Origin: an uncultured Bacillota bacterium
GTDB lineage: Bacteria; Bacillota_I; Bacilli_A; RFN20; CAG-288
Length of the DNA stretch: 33,859 nucleotides
Reading direction: 5' to 3'
Assembly (NCBI GenBank): GCA_949299015.1
Contig: CASFYT010000015.1
Location: forward strand, 1-33,859
The notes under the pieces were generated by a model. It was not told where the DNA came from. It searched no databases and saw nothing but the letters and a program-made list of their open reading frames with translations. The position numbers were made by a program, and so were the translations under genes. The first letter of the stretch is position 1. Each line of letters opens with the position of its first letter. Positions 30,358-33,859 of the stretch are shown piece by piece.

Positions 30358-30380
30358 GAGACATAGGCCGGCAAAGACGG

Positions 30381-30405
30381 AAAAAGGCCCGATTCCTCGG
30401 GCCTT
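30381..30405 (-). terminator. Rho-independent terminator after the XRE-nuclease-XRE genes
   Basis: Nine-base arms AAGGCCCGA and TCGGGCCTT close a four-base loop. On the minus strand the stem ends in CCTTTTTCC, a proper U run. It is correctly placed to end minus-strand transcription coming from the genes at 30560-31989, and separates them from the ZIP gene. Confidence 0.8.
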
Positions 30406-30450
30406 CTGGATTCGATGGCTGGGATACTTGGATTCGTTTTGTTCCGGTTT

Positions 30451-30487
30451 CTGCCTTGAAATACAGTACTGTTGTATTTCAAGGCAG
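30451..30487. repeat. Perfect 15-bp inverted repeat with 7-nt loop
   Basis: CTGCCTTGAAATACA (30451-30465) and its exact reverse complement (30473-30487) surround GTACTGT. The loop and inner arm form the palindrome ACAGTACTGT. On the plus strand it is followed by TCTTTTTCTG, so it could terminate plus-strand transcription, but no plus-strand gene lies to its left. It may be a bidirectional terminator, an operator or an element boundary. Confidence 0.8.
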
Positions 30488-30518
30488 TCTTTTTCTGTTT
30501 CGGAACTGCCCTTCTGTC

Positions 30519-30539
30519 CAGAGAGAATACTTCTCTCTG
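30519..30539. repeat. 9-bp inverted repeat just after the left XRE gene
   Basis: CAGAGAGAA and TTCTCTCTG flank TAC. It lies 20 bp past the stop of the XRE gene at 30560 on the minus strand, without a U run. It may protect the mRNA end or be an early part of the termination region. Confidence 0.5.
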
Positions 30540-30559
30540 CGTTCTGTATCAAATCCGTA

Positions 30560-30895
30560 TCACGGCTTTTCTTTTTCGCAGTCCAGCCTTTCCGTCTTTT
30601 CTTCCGCCGTGATTCCGCTTTCCTCCAGGATGGCCTTCGCCTCCCTGAGGATCCCTCGAAGTCTTTCCGCCTGTTCCTGGCTGATCTCGTATGTCGTCTT
30701 TCCTTCCGCGTCGATGACGTGGTTGATCGGCACCTGGTAGAGGCGGGAAAGCTTCCGGAGGACATCGTATCCCGCCTCGGAGATTCCCTGCTCGTAGGCG
30801 GCGTAGGTGCTCTTCGGGATTCCGAGGATGGCGGCGACGTCCTTCTGGAGGAGTCCCCGGCTCTTCCTGAGGCTTTCCATGGAGTTCCTCTTCAT
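30560..30895 (-). CDS. XRE-family transcriptional regulator (left copy)
   Basis: A 111-residue DNA-binding protein. The Cro/C1-type helix-turn-helix is at about 7-62, with the recognition segment LQKDVAAILGIPKSTYAAYE at 16-35. After it comes a short helical, charged tail (about 66-111) that could serve dimerisation. It is paralogous to the right-hand XRE gene: both have QKDVA, STYA or ATYA, EQG and LYQ..IN. GGAGG is six bases before ATG 30895. It lies 18 bp after the nuclease gene, and a terminator follows. It is probably a local repressor. Confidence 0.85.
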   Translation of the reverse strand: MKRNSMESLRKSRGLLQKDVAAILGIPKSTYAAYEQGISEAGYDVLRKLSRLYQVPINHVIDAEGKTTYEISQEQAERLRGILREAKAILEESGITAEEKTERLDCEKEKP

Positions 30896-30913
30896 CTTTG
30901 GCCTCCCGGCGGG

Positions 30914-31585
30914 CTACCGGTTCCAGCGGCCGGAGGGGTCGAAGGAGATCAGCCGCAGGAGAGTCGCCGCCAGCTTGTCCTTCATCTGCGGGTCCTCGGA
31001 GTCGAGTTCGATGAGCCGGACGTTGTCCATCCTGTAGATCTCCCTCTTGTATTCTTTTTGCTCCTGGTATCGGGGGTTGTTGATCCTTCCCCATATCTCG
31101 ACGTACACGTCGATGTCCGGGAGGTAGAAGTCGGGATTGATGGTCGGGCTTCCGTTTCCCGGGCTGTACTCCGGCTCGTACACGTGCCGGATGCGCCTGT
31201 CCCAGAGGAAGTCGTCGATGATCTCCTCGGCCTTGGAGCGGACCCGGTGTCCGTCCTTGCATTTGAACTCCCCGGGGATGTCCGTCCTCTTCGTCCTTTC
31301 CCGGGGCGTGTCCCCGACGAGGGGAATCCTTCCCCTCGCGATGCACCTGACGACTTTGGAGGGCCATTCGACGCTGCGTTCCCTCAGCGCCTCCGAGAGC
31401 CCATAGAGGGCGAGGCGAAGCTCCTCACCCTCTCCTTCGCCCTTTCCGTCGAGCAGGCGGAGGAAGTCCTCGGCGAGGGTCTCCGCGTTGCCGGGGAAGG
31501 GTATCTCCGTGGCCTTCCCGTGGCATTTCCTGCAGGCGATGAAGCTGAACGACGTCGGCTTTCCGCATACGAAGCATTTCCCCAT
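30914..31585 (-). CDS. Zinc-ribbon protein with PD-(D/E)XK nuclease domain
   Basis: The 223-residue product begins with a CxxC...CxxC zinc ribbon (C4, C7, C18, C21) and, after a helical middle, ends in a restriction-endonuclease-like fold. E120 in RSKAEE, D152 in NPDFYLP, E163 in VEIWG and K177/K180 in QEQKEYKREIY fit the catalytic order of PD-(D/E)XK enzymes in which the ExK motif reads ExW and the lysine has moved to the next helix. Such proteins cut DNA. The target is not known. It sits between two XRE regulator genes and has a weak SD (AAAGGA, 13 nt before the ATG). This suggests a regulated defence or mobile-element role, which is inference. Confidence 0.72.
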   Translation of the reverse strand: MGKCFVCGKPTSFSFIACRKCHGKATEIPFPGNAETLAEDFLRLLDGKGEGEGEELRLALYGLSEALRERSVEWPSKVVRCIARGRIPLVGDTPRERTKRTDIPGEFKCKDGHRVRSKAEEIIDDFLWDRRIRHVYEPEYSPGNGSPTINPDFYLPDIDVYVEIWGRINNPRYQEQKEYKREIYRMDNVRLIELDSEDPQMKDKLAATLLRLISFDPSGRWNR

Positions 31586-31632
31586 GGTTTTTGCCTGTCC
31601 TTTTCCCGTTGTCGGGGCTTCGGTGCCCCTGG

Positions 31633-31989
31633 CTATTTCTTGATTCTCTTCTTGATCTTGATCCTGTTGTTGTTGCCCACGATTTCGATTCCGGAGTTGA
31701 CGTGCATCTCGTAGACGACCCTGTCCAGGATGTCCCGCGCCTGGACGATCCTCTCGTATTGGGCCCGGGAAGTCAGGATCAGGTCCTTGTCCTCGAGTCC
31801 CAGGAGCTGGTTGATCGTCGCCTGGTACAGTTCCGAAAGCTTCTTCAGCGTCTCGAGGTCCGGCTCGGCCCTTCCCTGTTCCCAGTTGGCATAGGTCGCG
31901 GGGGCCACGTTCAGGTATTCGGCGACGTCCTTCTGGCGGAGCCCCTTGTCCTTCCGGTACTCCGAAAACAGGTTCCTAGGCTTGTCCAT
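31633..31989 (-). CDS. XRE-family transcriptional regulator (right copy, divergent repressor candidate)
   Basis: A 118-residue DNA-binding protein with a Cro/C1-type helix-turn-helix at about 8-62 (LRQKDVAEYLNVAPATYANW), then a helix and a very basic tail ending KIKKRIKK. I start at ATG 31989, because a GTG 30 bp upstream has AGGGG touching it and would add ten residues before the fold. There is no SD, and TAGAAT ends eight bases before the ATG. Its position facing the plus-strand genes across an operator-like dyad is the classic repressor position. A hairpin GGGGC/GCCCC lies between it and the nuclease gene. Confidence 0.85.
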   Translation of the reverse strand: MDKPRNLFSEYRKDKGLRQKDVAEYLNVAPATYANWEQGRAEPDLETLKKLSELYQATINQLLGLEDKDLILTSRAQYERIVQARDILDRVVYEMHVNSGIEIVGNNNRIKIKKRIKK

Positions 31990-31997
31990 TTGTAAAT

Positions 31998-32003
31998 ATT
32001 CTA
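31998..32003 (-). promoter_or_regulatory. -10 box of the right XRE gene, leaderless layout
   Basis: TAGAAT on the minus strand (32003-31998) ends eight bases before the ATG at 31989. The -35 region is weak (TCAAGG or TTCAAG near 32021-32027). No SD is present. Confidence 0.45.
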
Positions 32004-32022
32004 AGTTTTTGCGAGCCACCCC

Positions 32023-32068
32023 TTGAAAAAAAAAAAAAAAATGCTAATATCGATTGTAATTAGCATTT
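32023..32068 (+). promoter_or_regulatory. Promoter and operator-like dyad of the divergent plus-strand genes
   Basis: TTGAAA (32023-32028) and TAATAT (32045-32050) are 16 nt apart, with most of the spacer being a run of 16 adenines (32026-32041). A perfect 10-bp inverted repeat, AAATGCTAAT (32039-32048) and ATTAGCATTT (32059-32068), with ten bases between, covers the -10 box and the likely start of transcription. A dimer of the adjacent XRE protein bound there would block this promoter. The binding is inferred. Confidence 0.65.
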
Positions 32069-32092
32069 ACTGCTAGGAAAGGAGCCTTGAAA

Positions 32093-32590
32093 ATGGCTGA
32101 CGAAGAGAAGAAGGACGTCGTCCCGGAGGGATTCCGGAAGCTGTCGGAGTTCACGGTGGAGGAGCTGCTGAAGCTCCCGCGCATCCCGATGAGGATGGTC
32201 GAGACGACCAATGACAGGACGGGGCAGGTCCGATTCAACGCATACGTCTACCTGCTGGAGTCGCGCCTGGAGGTGCGCTTCCCGATCGACAGGGCGACCT
32301 ACCACCTCGTGGCGAGGCTTCGGGGGAAGGACTCCACGAAGAGCGAGTACACGGTCTCGTTCCCCTACCGGGTCGTGCGGGGAAGGGGCGTCTCCGAGGA
32401 GGACGGACACGAGTTCGACTACTACTACGTCGAGGGATACGCCGCGCCGATGGAGCGGAAGGTGTACCTCAACCAGCTCCTGACGGGGTCGCAGGTGGAC
32501 CTGGTCGAGTGCTTCGGCCTCGACGGGGTCGTCGACCGCGGCTACGCGGGCTCGGTCAAGGGCGTCGGCTACTTCGACGACCTGGGCTGA
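32093..32590 (+). CDS. Unrecognised 165-residue protein, first gene of the divergent run
   Basis: I do not recognise this family. The start at ATG 32093 is set by AAAGGAG eight bases upstream. The protein is soluble and has no signal peptide or membrane segment. It begins with a short charged helix (KKDVVPEGFRKLSEFTVEELLKL), then a β-rich part with many alternating hydrophobic and charged residues (YVYLLESRLEVRFPID near 54-69). One cysteine is near residue 148. Immediately after the control region, it is the gene most directly exposed to repression. It could be an early protein of a mobile element. No function is claimed. Confidence 0.7.
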   Translation: MADEEKKDVVPEGFRKLSEFTVEELLKLPRIPMRMVETTNDRTGQVRFNAYVYLLESRLEVRFPIDRATYHLVARLRGKDSTKSEYTVSFPYRVVRGRGVSEEDGHEFDYYYVEGYAAPMERKVYLNQLLTGSQVDLVECFGLDGVVDRGYAGSVKGVGYFDDLG

Positions 32591-32598
32591 GGAGGGAT

Positions 32599-32617
32599 GC
32601 CGTCCCCCGGGGACGGC
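32599..32617. repeat. GC-rich 9-bp hairpin after the first plus-strand gene
   Basis: GCCGTCCCC and GGGGACGGC are exact reverse complements around one C, eight bases after the stop at 32590. No U run follows, so it is a weak terminator at best. A looser GGCCAGGG/CCCTGGCC pair follows at about 32632-32667 in the same gap. Confidence 0.45.
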
Positions 32618-32688
32618 CCTCGCGTCGGGTCGGCCAGGGGATTTCGGCTTTCCTTTCCTCCCTGGCCCTCCCAGCGGGAGGAACGGAC

Positions 32689-32886
32689 ATGGCATACGTG
32701 AAGGGAAGGATCCTGGGCTTCGTCAACTATCCGACGGTGAGGAGGACGAAGAGGTGCACGGCGATCTGCCACAGGAAGATCCTGCGGTGCGAGCTGGACG
32801 ACGGGACGGTGAGGCACTACTGGGCCAACGACTACAATGCGTCGAAGCTGTCGCGGTGGCTGGGCAGGATTCCCGTGGAGGACTAG
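32689..32886 (+). CDS. Small basic protein, 65 residues
   Basis: A small soluble, basic protein with no family known to me. ATG 32689 has GGAGG seven bases upstream. The sequence has a basic patch (RRTKR, 18-22), two cysteines near 23 and 27 and another near 34, a β-like stretch (KILRCELDDGTVRHYW) and a short helical end (NASKLSRWLGR). The size and charge suit a DNA- or RNA-binding accessory protein, but that is only a guess. It precedes another SD-led start by 10 bp, so the genes appear to be one transcript. Confidence 0.6.
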   Translation: MAYVKGRILGFVNYPTVRRTKRCTAICHRKILRCELDDGTVRHYWANDYNASKLSRWLGRIPVED

Positions 32887-32896
32887 GAGGAAGGAC

Positions 32897-32956
32897 ATGG
32901 ACGAGAGGTACGAAAGGGTTCCGTATCGGTTCGGCCGATTGCGTTGTGGGCTTTGA
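32897..32956 (+). pseudogene. Truncated gene start (19 codons)
   Basis: ATG 32897 follows AGGAGG closely, as strong as any start in this run, but the frame stops at 32954-32956 after 19 codons (MDERYERVPYRFGRLRCGL). After about ten codons the sequence changes to a less GC-rich texture. This looks like a gene cut by an insertion or deletion. A real 19-residue peptide or leader peptide cannot be excluded. Confidence 0.45.
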
Positions 32957-33027
32957 GCGGCCTGAAGCGATGGCCATCCGGATTTGCGCCAGTGTTTGGA
33001 ACCATCGGGCCTGGATTCAACGAAAGC

Positions 33028-33159
33028 AACAAAAAAGGGGCGACTGAGTACATTTGCCTGAGACTTCCGGAATGCCGGCACCCAGACGGTACGCCGAGGA
33101 ATCCTCGTTCATCGCCGCTAAAAGTCTATCGTTGTGTTCAGGAAAAATCAAGGAGGTGA
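33028..33159 (+). pseudogene. Possible transposase scrap between small genes
   Basis: The 208-bp stretch at 32957-33164 has no start with an SD. One plus frame reads NKKGATEYICLRLPECRHPD and then a basic tail. That reminds me of the N-terminal β-strand region of some IS transposases, where a basic start is followed by a Tyr-rich strand and a turn. No terminal repeats, target duplication or DDE motif are present. Confidence is low. Confidence 0.25.
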
Positions 33160-33164
33160 TTGGC

Positions 33165-33413
33165 ATGCCATTGCATAGGGCAAACCACGGGAGCCTTGGA
33201 TGGCACAGGCGCGTCTCGAGATACGCGGACGCCTGCGTCCGGAACAACGGACCTGAGGCCTACGTCAGGGTCCATGCCCTGGCCCAGAGTTATCCCGAAA
33301 ACGGTGACAGGAGGCAGTTCCTCGACGCGGTCCTGGCCCACCTGCGGATCTTCGAGAAGCAGTACGGGATGGACTTCGATCGGCCCTCCGGTCGGGGAAC
33401 GCCGAGGAGATGA
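33165..33413 (+). CDS. Small protein, 82 residues, with near-perfect SD
   Basis: ATG 33165 follows AAGGAGGTGA, the full anti-SD complement, by five bases, one of the strongest sites in the window. The product is soluble and basic at the start (HRANHGSLGWHRRVSRYADA). A helical middle follows (RRQFLDAVLAHLRIFEKQYG, about 48-67), then an Arg/Gly-rich tail. I do not recognise a family. Earlier in-frame ATGs lack an SD and fall in the transposase-like scrap. It is spaced 34 bp from the next gene, so it is likely part of the same run. Confidence 0.65.
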   Translation: MPLHRANHGSLGWHRRVSRYADACVRNNGPEAYVRVHALAQSYPENGDRRQFLDAVLAHLRIFEKQYGMDFDRPSGRGTPRR

Positions 33414-33447
33414 CGGAAGGAAGGCCGGAAGAAAGGAGGACGGAGAC

Positions 33448-33859
33448 ATGAAGGTGCCGCTTGCGAGGAAGGGAAGGAGGCCGGTGCAGTTCTACGTCGG
33501 GAATCTCGGGAGTGACGGAGAATATCCGTCGGATGGTATGCCGGATTTTGGCTTTGCTTTCGCTGCTCCGTTCGACACGGATGACCTGTCGGTCTCTCCT
33601 GTTGAGGAATATTCAGGGTTCAAAGGATATTTCCGCTTTTACAATGACACCTACAACGATTCCGGCCCACACGAGCTTCGTGTCGACAATCCTTCCTGGG
33701 TCTTCCACCTGGACGACGACCAATGGAAGGAGGGTCATCACTACATCTCCGAGGAGCTGGACGCATACGCCTCCTCCTACGTGGATTCCGACCCTTCCGA
33801 CGACCTTCCGGTCCTCAACTCGGCGGTCTCGAACGAGCTCTTCTACGTCCCGAACTACA
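33448..33859 (+). CDS. Unrecognised acidic protein, 3' end outside window
   Basis: The frame opens at ATG 33448 with AAAGGAGG eight bases upstream and stays open for 137 codons to the right edge, so it is partial at its C terminus. After a basic start (KVPLARKGRRPVQF) the sequence turns strongly acidic and aromatic (for example FRFYNDTYNDSGPHEL and WVFHLDDDQWKEGHHY). No signal peptide or membrane segment is visible. AT-richer codons appear around 33520-33680 compared with the flanks. It could be a structural or immunity-like protein of the element. I do not name a function. Confidence 0.6.
   Translation, partial: MKVPLARKGRRPVQFYVGNLGSDGEYPSDGMPDFGFAFAAPFDTDDLSVSPVEEYSGFKGYFRFYNDTYNDSGPHELRVDNPSWVFHLDDDQWKEGHHYISEELDAYASSYVDSDPSDDLPVLNSAVSNELFYVPNY

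What the first reader, a model, noticed from the sequence alone, without database searches (positions are those of the whole stretch)
30560..33859. Two XRE regulators flank a zinc-ribbon nuclease, divergent from unknown small genes
The minus-strand trio (XRE, PD-(D/E)XK nuclease with zinc ribbon, XRE) ends in a clear terminator. It faces a plus-strand run of SD-led small genes with no recognisable families. The flanking chromosome is all housekeeping. This is the layout of a compact mobile or defence module with its own repressors, and the set of genes is not one I know. No integrase is visible, so the element either continues past the right edge or is a static island.
Basis: partly seen in the sequence, partly recalled or inferred. 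Interest (0 to 1): 0.75.

Follow-up and report, generated by a model that had tools for sequence, protein, structure and literature searches.

The report
Prophage end carrying a nuclease cargo
The three leftward genes and the unknown small rightward genes are one end of a small virus-like element, probably a filamentous-phage-like prophage, inserted in a glutamine tRNA gene of an uncultured Bacilli bacterium; besides its repressor it carries a zinc-ribbon nuclease that recurs in other elements of this order and near defence genes.

Summary
The genes are real, but they are not a self-contained defence module. They are the attR end of an integrated element cut by the contig edge (the window is a whole 33,859-base contig). 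Window 30365-30436 repeats, letter for letter, 72 bases containing the 3' end of tRNA-Gln. The other copy lies on contig C6 of the same genome beside the intact tRNA-Gln and a tyrosine integrase. A 19-base motif occurs just twice in the 1.14-Mb genome, once at each of these ends. Six congeners have the site empty. Congener G004 has a complete ~12.9-kb element at the same tRNA: integrase, rolling-circle Rep, membrane P-loop ATPase, large secreted proteins, homologues of the window's small genes, divergent XRE. This resembles an inovirus, but no Zot model matches the ATPase. XRE2 is an RstR-like repressor beside a palindrome overlapping the rightward -10 box. XRE1 plus the Zn-ribbon PD-(D/E)XK nuclease are extra: the 88%-identical G010 phage lacks them, while G060 (another family) has an XRE-XRE-nuclease cassette in the same slot. 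Most other nuclease copies lie in ordinary chromosome, some near restriction or helicase genes. Best reading: lysogeny region plus anti-phage cargo. Mobility and boundaries are well supported; filamentous nature and nuclease role are inferred.

The parts
30365..30436 (-). attR: 72-bp repeat holding the 3' end of tRNA-Gln plus its terminator; identical copy at G000:C6:108602-108673 next to the intact tRNA-Gln and the integrase
   Evidence: Exact comparison; no complete tRNA here by ARAGORN; intact tRNA-Gln on C6; 36-nt repeat of the same tRNA end flanks the G004 element
30451..30487 (+). 17-pair hairpin with T-run on the + side; in the excised circle it would end the rightward operon after the integrase
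   Evidence: also inverted repeat I2; role inferred
30544..30564 (+). CTGTATCAAATCCGTATCACG, putative integrase arm-type site; its 19-base core is found only at the two ends of the element
   Evidence: 0 expected in shuffles of the window; exactly 2 places in the whole genome (C15:30544 and C6:108677), 2 in G010, 0 in three other congeners
30560..30895 (-). XRE1, 111-aa HTH_3 protein, 44% identical to XRE2 over 77 residues; absent from the G010 phage
30914..31585 (-). Zinc-ribbon PD-(D/E)XK nuclease, 223 aa (cargo)
31523..31576 (-). zinc ribbon CFVC-x10-CRKC (residues 4-21)
   Evidence: sequence; C4 and C7 invariant in the family
30959..31288 (-). PD-(D/E)XK domain (residues 100-209); E120, D152, E163, K177, K180 invariant in the alignment
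31633..32019 (-). XRE2, RstR-like phage repressor (GTG 32019 or ATG 31989)
   Evidence: HTH_3 E 4.6e-15; NCBIfam phage_RstR E 8.7e-12 but 45 bits against a cut-off of 80; homologue in the same position in G010
32023..32050 (+). rightward promoter-like site TTGAAA-16-TAATAT with TG before the -10
   Evidence: 2 sites found in the region, 0.9 expected
32040..32067 (.). perfect palindrome AATGCTAAT-N10-ATTAGCATT over the -10 box, probable operator of XRE2; ATGCTA/TAGCAT kept in G010
   Evidence: 43 of 5000 shuffles of the intergenic region have such a repeat; conservation; binding inferred
32093..32590 (+). first rightward gene, 165 aa, unknown; 93% identical in G010, 47% in G004, 29% in G014; weak model with beta-beta-beta-alpha-beta-beta order (ssDNA-binding protein suspected)
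   Evidence: mean pLDDT 52; no significant fold match
32689..32886 (+). 65-aa gene; present in G010, positional counterpart of 64 aa in G004
32897..32956 (+). 19-codon stub of a gene that is longer in G010 (MDERYERVPYRFG...)
   Evidence: 50-nt 96% match then divergence
33165..33413 (+). 82-aa gene, 97% DNA identity to G010
33448..33859 (+). open frame cut by the contig end: start resembles a small G010 gene (MKNPLKSRRKPV...), the rest matches the middle of the 753-aa surface protein of G004 (41%, E 1.4e-12)

Best explanation
Window 30365-33859 is the attR-proximal end of an integrated, temperate, small virus-like element, most likely a filamentous-phage-like (inovirus-like) prophage, inserted by its own tyrosine integrase into the 3' end of tRNA-Gln between rlmH-tRNA-Gln and the ZIP-pcrA-ligA genes. 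The integrase end is on contig C6; the middle (Rep, ATPase, most surface proteins) is missing from the draft genome. Proposed working: (1) integration by recombination in the 72-bp tRNA-Gln repeat (shown by the repeats, the intact tRNA and the empty sites; catalysis inferred). (2) XRE2 binds the palindrome over the rightward -10 box and shuts off the replication and virion operon (inferred). (3) The leftward operon XRE2-nuclease-XRE1 stays on in the lysogen. The nuclease, whose zinc ribbon and PD-(D/E)XK motif are intact, cuts incoming foreign or superinfecting DNA, so the prophage carries it as a defence cargo; XRE1 tunes this operon (inferred from position and from the company its relatives keep).
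For: att: identical 72-bp repeat at window 30365-30436 and C6:108602-108673, beside intact tRNA-Gln and a 365-aa integrase. Arm motif at exactly these two places in the genome, none in three congeners. Empty site: in six congeners pcrA starts within about 0.2 kb of tRNA-Gln. Complete relative: G004 C1 ~225.6-238.5 kb, same tRNA-Gln, 36-nt att repeats, integrase (Phage_integrase E 3.2e-24), Rep_trans Rep (E 1.5e-27), membrane P-loop ATPase, Ig-type surface proteins, homologues of the window's 165-aa and 137-aa frames, divergent XRE. Near-identical regulatory region in G010 without nuclease and XRE1. The Rep resembles those of Inoviridae records, and Dulem virus 51 has the same overlapping Rep-recombinase order. 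Cargo slot: G060 (another family of the order) has nuclease-XRE-XRE between an 18-nt tRNA-Thr att repeat and its own structural operon, with ATPase, Rep_trans Rep and integrase downstream; in G019 the repressor-position XRE carries the same zinc ribbon; in G107 the nuclease follows an operon with a Rep_OBD Rep and a distantly similar ATPase. Defence company elsewhere: two C5 methylases, an HNH restriction enzyme and a PDC-S60 protein (L112), helicases of the MkoA/MkoC type (L114, L116), a UvrD helicase (L111).
Against: The body of this particular element is missing from the assembly: no ATPase is found in G000, so its content is read from relatives. The ATPase family misses the Pfam Zot model and PHROGs; a profile comparison with annotated Zot proteins gives only 50.7%. 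The Rep is equally close to plasmid Reps (best plasmid hit E 1e-14). No clear major coat protein was identified. The rearranged rightward genes suggest decay or a chimeric contig end. Of about 20 small-nuclease loci only three lie in such elements; many others sit in ordinary chromosome with no defence gene recognised. No experiment shows nuclease or defence activity.
Confidence: 0.7

Rival explanations
1. The element is a small integrative plasmid or a stripped conjugative element (Rep_trans relaxase, XRE repressor, tRNA integration), not a virus.
For: Rep_trans covers plasmid and conjugative-transposon initiators; the Rep's best plasmid match (E 1e-14) is at least as good as its inovirus matches (E 7e-11). 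No Zot match.
Against: No other conjugation protein was recognised in the ~12.9-kb G004 element, by eye or in the Pfam scan of its main proteins; instead long secreted or TM-anchored proteins, some with Ig-like folds, several small proteins and one TM-anchored ATPase in an inovirus-like order.
Confidence: 0.2
2. The nuclease with the XREs is a toxin-antitoxin or addiction-type unit that keeps the element in the cell, rather than a defence gene.
For: XRE proteins are common antitoxins; the genes are tightly spaced (47 and 18 nt); NCBIfam antitoxin models give weak partial hits. In G019 the zinc ribbon is part of the XRE.
Against: The nuclease family often occurs without any XRE next to it (for example L062, L067, L111-L116), which a toxin needing an XRE antitoxin should not; XRE hits to antitoxin models are far below their cut-offs.
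Confidence: 0.2
3. The nuclease serves the element's own life cycle (resolving replication intermediates, excision).
For: Weak PHROG match to Holliday-junction resolvases (E 2.3e-4); it lies near the att site.
Against: G004 and G010 elements lack it at this position; most copies lie outside such elements.
Confidence: 0.12
4. A static chromosomal island or ordinary chromosomal genes.
For: None beyond the contig edge.
Against: att repeats, integrase, unique terminal motif, empty sites in congeners.
Confidence: 0.03

Closest known systems
Inoviridae / Tubulavirales prophages (CTXphi-type with RstR; Dulem virus 51, PP511381)
   Same: Divergent XRE repressor, small early genes, large secreted surface proteins, TM-anchored P-loop ATPase, rolling-circle Rep overlapping a recombinase, ~13 kb, integration
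   Different: The ATPase is not recognised by the Zot model and has its TM at the N-terminus with long inserts; no obvious major coat protein in G004; no relative found in IMG/VR with the 165-aa protein, the ATPase or the nuclease
RstR family repressors (NCBIfam NF041951)
   Same: Best NCBIfam match of both XREs, phage-repressor position
   Different: 45 and 35 bits against a cut-off of 80; not a member by the curated rule
PADLOC candidates PDC-S69 and HEAT_CxxC_PDDEXK
   Same: Same PD-(D/E)XK domain (E 4.6e-22 and 1.2e-13)
   Different: Only the last ~110 residues align; the window protein has a zinc ribbon and a ~75-residue linker in place of their N-terminal part
PD-(D/E)XK domains within UvrD-type helicases
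   Same: Similar domain within ~1000-residue frames in this order and in plasmid UvrD-helicase genes
   Different: Here a small free-standing protein

Membership tests
Inoviridae (filamentous phages) | pI/Zot-type morphogenesis ATPase with Zot as closest domain (criterion used in PMC6813254) | tested here: inconclusive
   Relatives have a TM-anchored P-loop ATPase; PF05707 does not match it, member scans show no Zot, profile comparison aligns Walker B and the following R/Q motif at 50.7%; missing in the G000 assembly
Inoviridae (filamentous phages) | Rolling-circle replication initiator | tested here: met
   In relatives only: PF02486 in G004 (E 1.5e-27) and G060 (E 2.1e-26); not visible in the window's own element
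Inoviridae (filamentous phages) | Small genome with defined ends | tested here: met
   G004: ~12.9 kb between 36-nt att repeats; G000: both ends found, middle missing
Inoviridae (filamentous phages) | Small single-TM major coat protein | tested here: inconclusive
   Candidates by eye only: a 53-aa protein in G060 and a 61-aa protein in G037; none obvious in G004
Inoviridae (filamentous phages) | Filamentous ssDNA virion released without lysis | not testable with these tools
   needs microscopy or virion sequencing
RstR repressor family (NF041951) | Score over the curated cut-off (80 bits) | tested here: not met
   45.3 and 34.5 bits
PDC-S69 / HEAT_CxxC_PDDEXK candidate defence families | Full-length match to the family protein | tested here: not met
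   Only positions 174-281 of 289 and 181-284 of 288 align
tRNA-targeting tyrosine-integrase prophage/element | Direct repeats of a tRNA 3' end at both ends, integrase at one end, empty sites in relatives | tested here: met

The most novel reading that the evidence does not exclude
These elements are an undescribed lineage of integrating filamentous-phage-like viruses of one order of Bacilli, missed by Zot-based searches, with a cargo slot between repressor and attachment site in which a zinc-ribbon PD-(D/E)XK nuclease, transcribed with the repressor, acts as a single-gene anti-phage or superinfection-exclusion system.
Probability: 0.35. Interest if true: 0.7.

Novelty: new variant of a known kind. 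Interest (0 to 1): 0.5.

Why it matters
The large published inovirus survey (PMC6813254) starts from Zot/pI-like ATPases. This family, seen with long ATPase matches in about a dozen of 245 genomes of the order, has an ATPase that the Pfam Zot model misses, and it gave no hit in IMG/VR, so filamentous-type prophages in small-genome Bacilli may be undercounted. The repressor-att slot carrying a nuclease in unrelated elements gives a concrete, testable case of a prophage protecting its host with a single small nuclease.

Tried and rejected
Static island: rejected by att repeats and empty sites. Terminator of the minus-strand trio: rejected by orientation. Structured RNA at 32930-33164: fold no better than shuffles (z -0.87); no credible Rfam match in the region. 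A second copy of the element in the genome: none. AlphaFold of the G004 ATPase without an alignment failed (mean pLDDT 32) and was not searched further; the 165-aa model is weak (pLDDT 52) and its fold search gave nothing significant. Relatives in IMG/VR: none for the 165-aa protein, the ATPase or the nuclease; a single-sequence scan of genome contigs with the nuclease found nothing. PDB sequence searches with ATPase and nuclease profiles: nothing useful. Zot by Pfam: negative. That the nuclease gene is itself always tRNA-linked: five of the seven first relative loci have a tRNA nearby but most later loci do not, so dropped.
Full report
Observation. The window is the whole of contig C15 of a draft genome (1.14 Mb in 19 contigs, 85% complete). 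The three minus-strand genes are present as described: XRE1 30560-30895, zinc-ribbon PD-(D/E)XK nuclease 30914-31585, XRE2 31633-32019. The rightward small genes have no credible hit in Pfam, PHROGs, PADLOC or NCBIfam. The hairpin at 30451-30487 is real, but its T-run lies on the + side, so it does not end the minus-strand trio.

Boundaries. The stretch 30365-30436 is a 72-base exact copy of a piece of contig C6 (108602-108673) that holds the 3' end of tRNA-Gln(CTG) and its terminator; on C6 the tRNA is complete and is followed by a 365-aa tyrosine integrase, and that contig also ends inside the element. In the window no tRNA is complete at this place, so this is attR and C6 holds attL. The motif CTGTATCAARYCYGTATCA occurs in the genome only at C15:30544 and C6:108677, within about 110 bases of the att repeats; G010 also has two, three other congeners none. 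I read these as integrase arm sites (inference). In six congeners pcrA starts directly beyond tRNA-Gln, the empty site. G010 keeps the end of an integrase gene, 82% identical to that of G000, at this tRNA.

What lies between. Congener G004 (public record CALVMW010000001.1, an uncultured Bacilli MAG) has a complete element at the same tRNA-Gln with a 36-nt att repeat. In the orientation of the window its order is: XRE (leftward), then rightward the 165-aa homologue, 64 aa, further small genes, 446-, 749- and 753-aa secreted or membrane-anchored proteins, 74-aa membrane protein, 477-aa P-loop ATPase with N-terminal TM, Rep_trans Rep, integrase. The window's last frame matches the middle of the 753-aa protein. 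G010 has the same regulatory region at 88% DNA identity. Against G010 the window's rightward genes are rearranged: a 19-codon stub, then the 82-aa gene, then a start like that of another small gene joined to the surface protein (and sequence). This element may therefore be decaying, or the contig end chimeric; I cannot tell which.

Is it an inovirus? Layout, size, Rep, membrane ATPase, large secreted proteins and divergent repressor fit. The Rep is related to those of Inoviridae records, and Dulem virus 51 has the same overlapping Rep-recombinase pair. But the Rep is as close to plasmid Reps, Pfam Zot does not match the ATPase, and a profile comparison with annotated Zot proteins reaches 50.7% over the Walker B region only. 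So on present evidence it looks as if it works like a filamentous prophage; membership is not established. No relative turned up in IMG/VR.

Regulation. XRE2 resembles RstR-type repressors below the family cut-off. A perfect 9+9 palindrome at 32040-32067 overlaps the -10 box of the only + strand promoter-like site of the region; 43 of 5000 shuffles of the intergenic region contain such a repeat, and its core is kept in G010. XRE1 is 44% identical to XRE2 over 77 residues.

The nuclease. It carries the conserved residues of its family. Of 245 genomes of the order 52 match the profile, but more than half of these match only through large frames, mostly of about 1000 residues, with a similar domain; small free-standing nucleases are in about 20. 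Three of these lie in elements of this kind: G000; G060, where nuclease-XRE-XRE lies between an 18-nt tRNA-Thr repeat and the structural operon; and G107, behind an operon with a Rep_OBD Rep and a distantly similar ATPase. In G019 the XRE at the repressor position carries the same zinc ribbon. G004 and G010 elements lack the nuclease in this slot. Elsewhere it lies beside restriction-modification genes (L112), helicases of defence type (L114, L116) or a UvrD helicase (L111), or in ordinary chromosome. A defence or superinfection-exclusion role follows from this company and is inference, as is its expression with the repressor.

Verdict. An integrated tRNA-Gln element is strongly supported; filamentous-phage-like is likely; a nuclease defence cargo is the best guess. 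New variant of a known kind.

Noticed in passing
L058:10832 and L058:11555 (G010 phage): An ~80-base potentially structured element (TTTGCCxTGATGAAACC...GGGCCACATGATCA inside a closing stem) occurs twice, each time just upstream of an SD-led small gene; no Rfam match. Not present in the window.
   Followed up: partly
L018:417-1757 and L017:17654-19903 (G004): Two large secreted proteins share the same ~35-residue tryptophan-rich C-terminus (LDWWSAFCKWWIDGFQCLWNWLCGRGWYTNAELGLE); a similar W/F-rich tail recurs in the G012 element.
   Followed up: no
L161/L162 (G045:C14) and L160 (G037:C4): G045 holds two near-identical elements in tandem about 10.5 kb apart; G037 holds two in inverted orientation with transposase-like genes between them.
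   Followed up: no
L114:1390-4849, L116:5295-8775: Nuclease and a ~900-aa helicase (MkoA/MkoC-like) are directly adjacent in two genera, in opposite gene order: a possible two-gene defence system.
   Followed up: partly
L019:2792-3600 (G010:C8): In G010 the repressor end of the phage lies near rfbB, while an integrase relic lies at tRNA-Gln on another contig: a second insertion site or a rearrangement.
   Followed up: partly
L143-L149, L156: A second ATPase type (~700-770 aa, several N-terminal TM segments) with weak similarity to the ATPase family occurs in several genomes of family f5; possibly another group of such elements.
   Followed up: no
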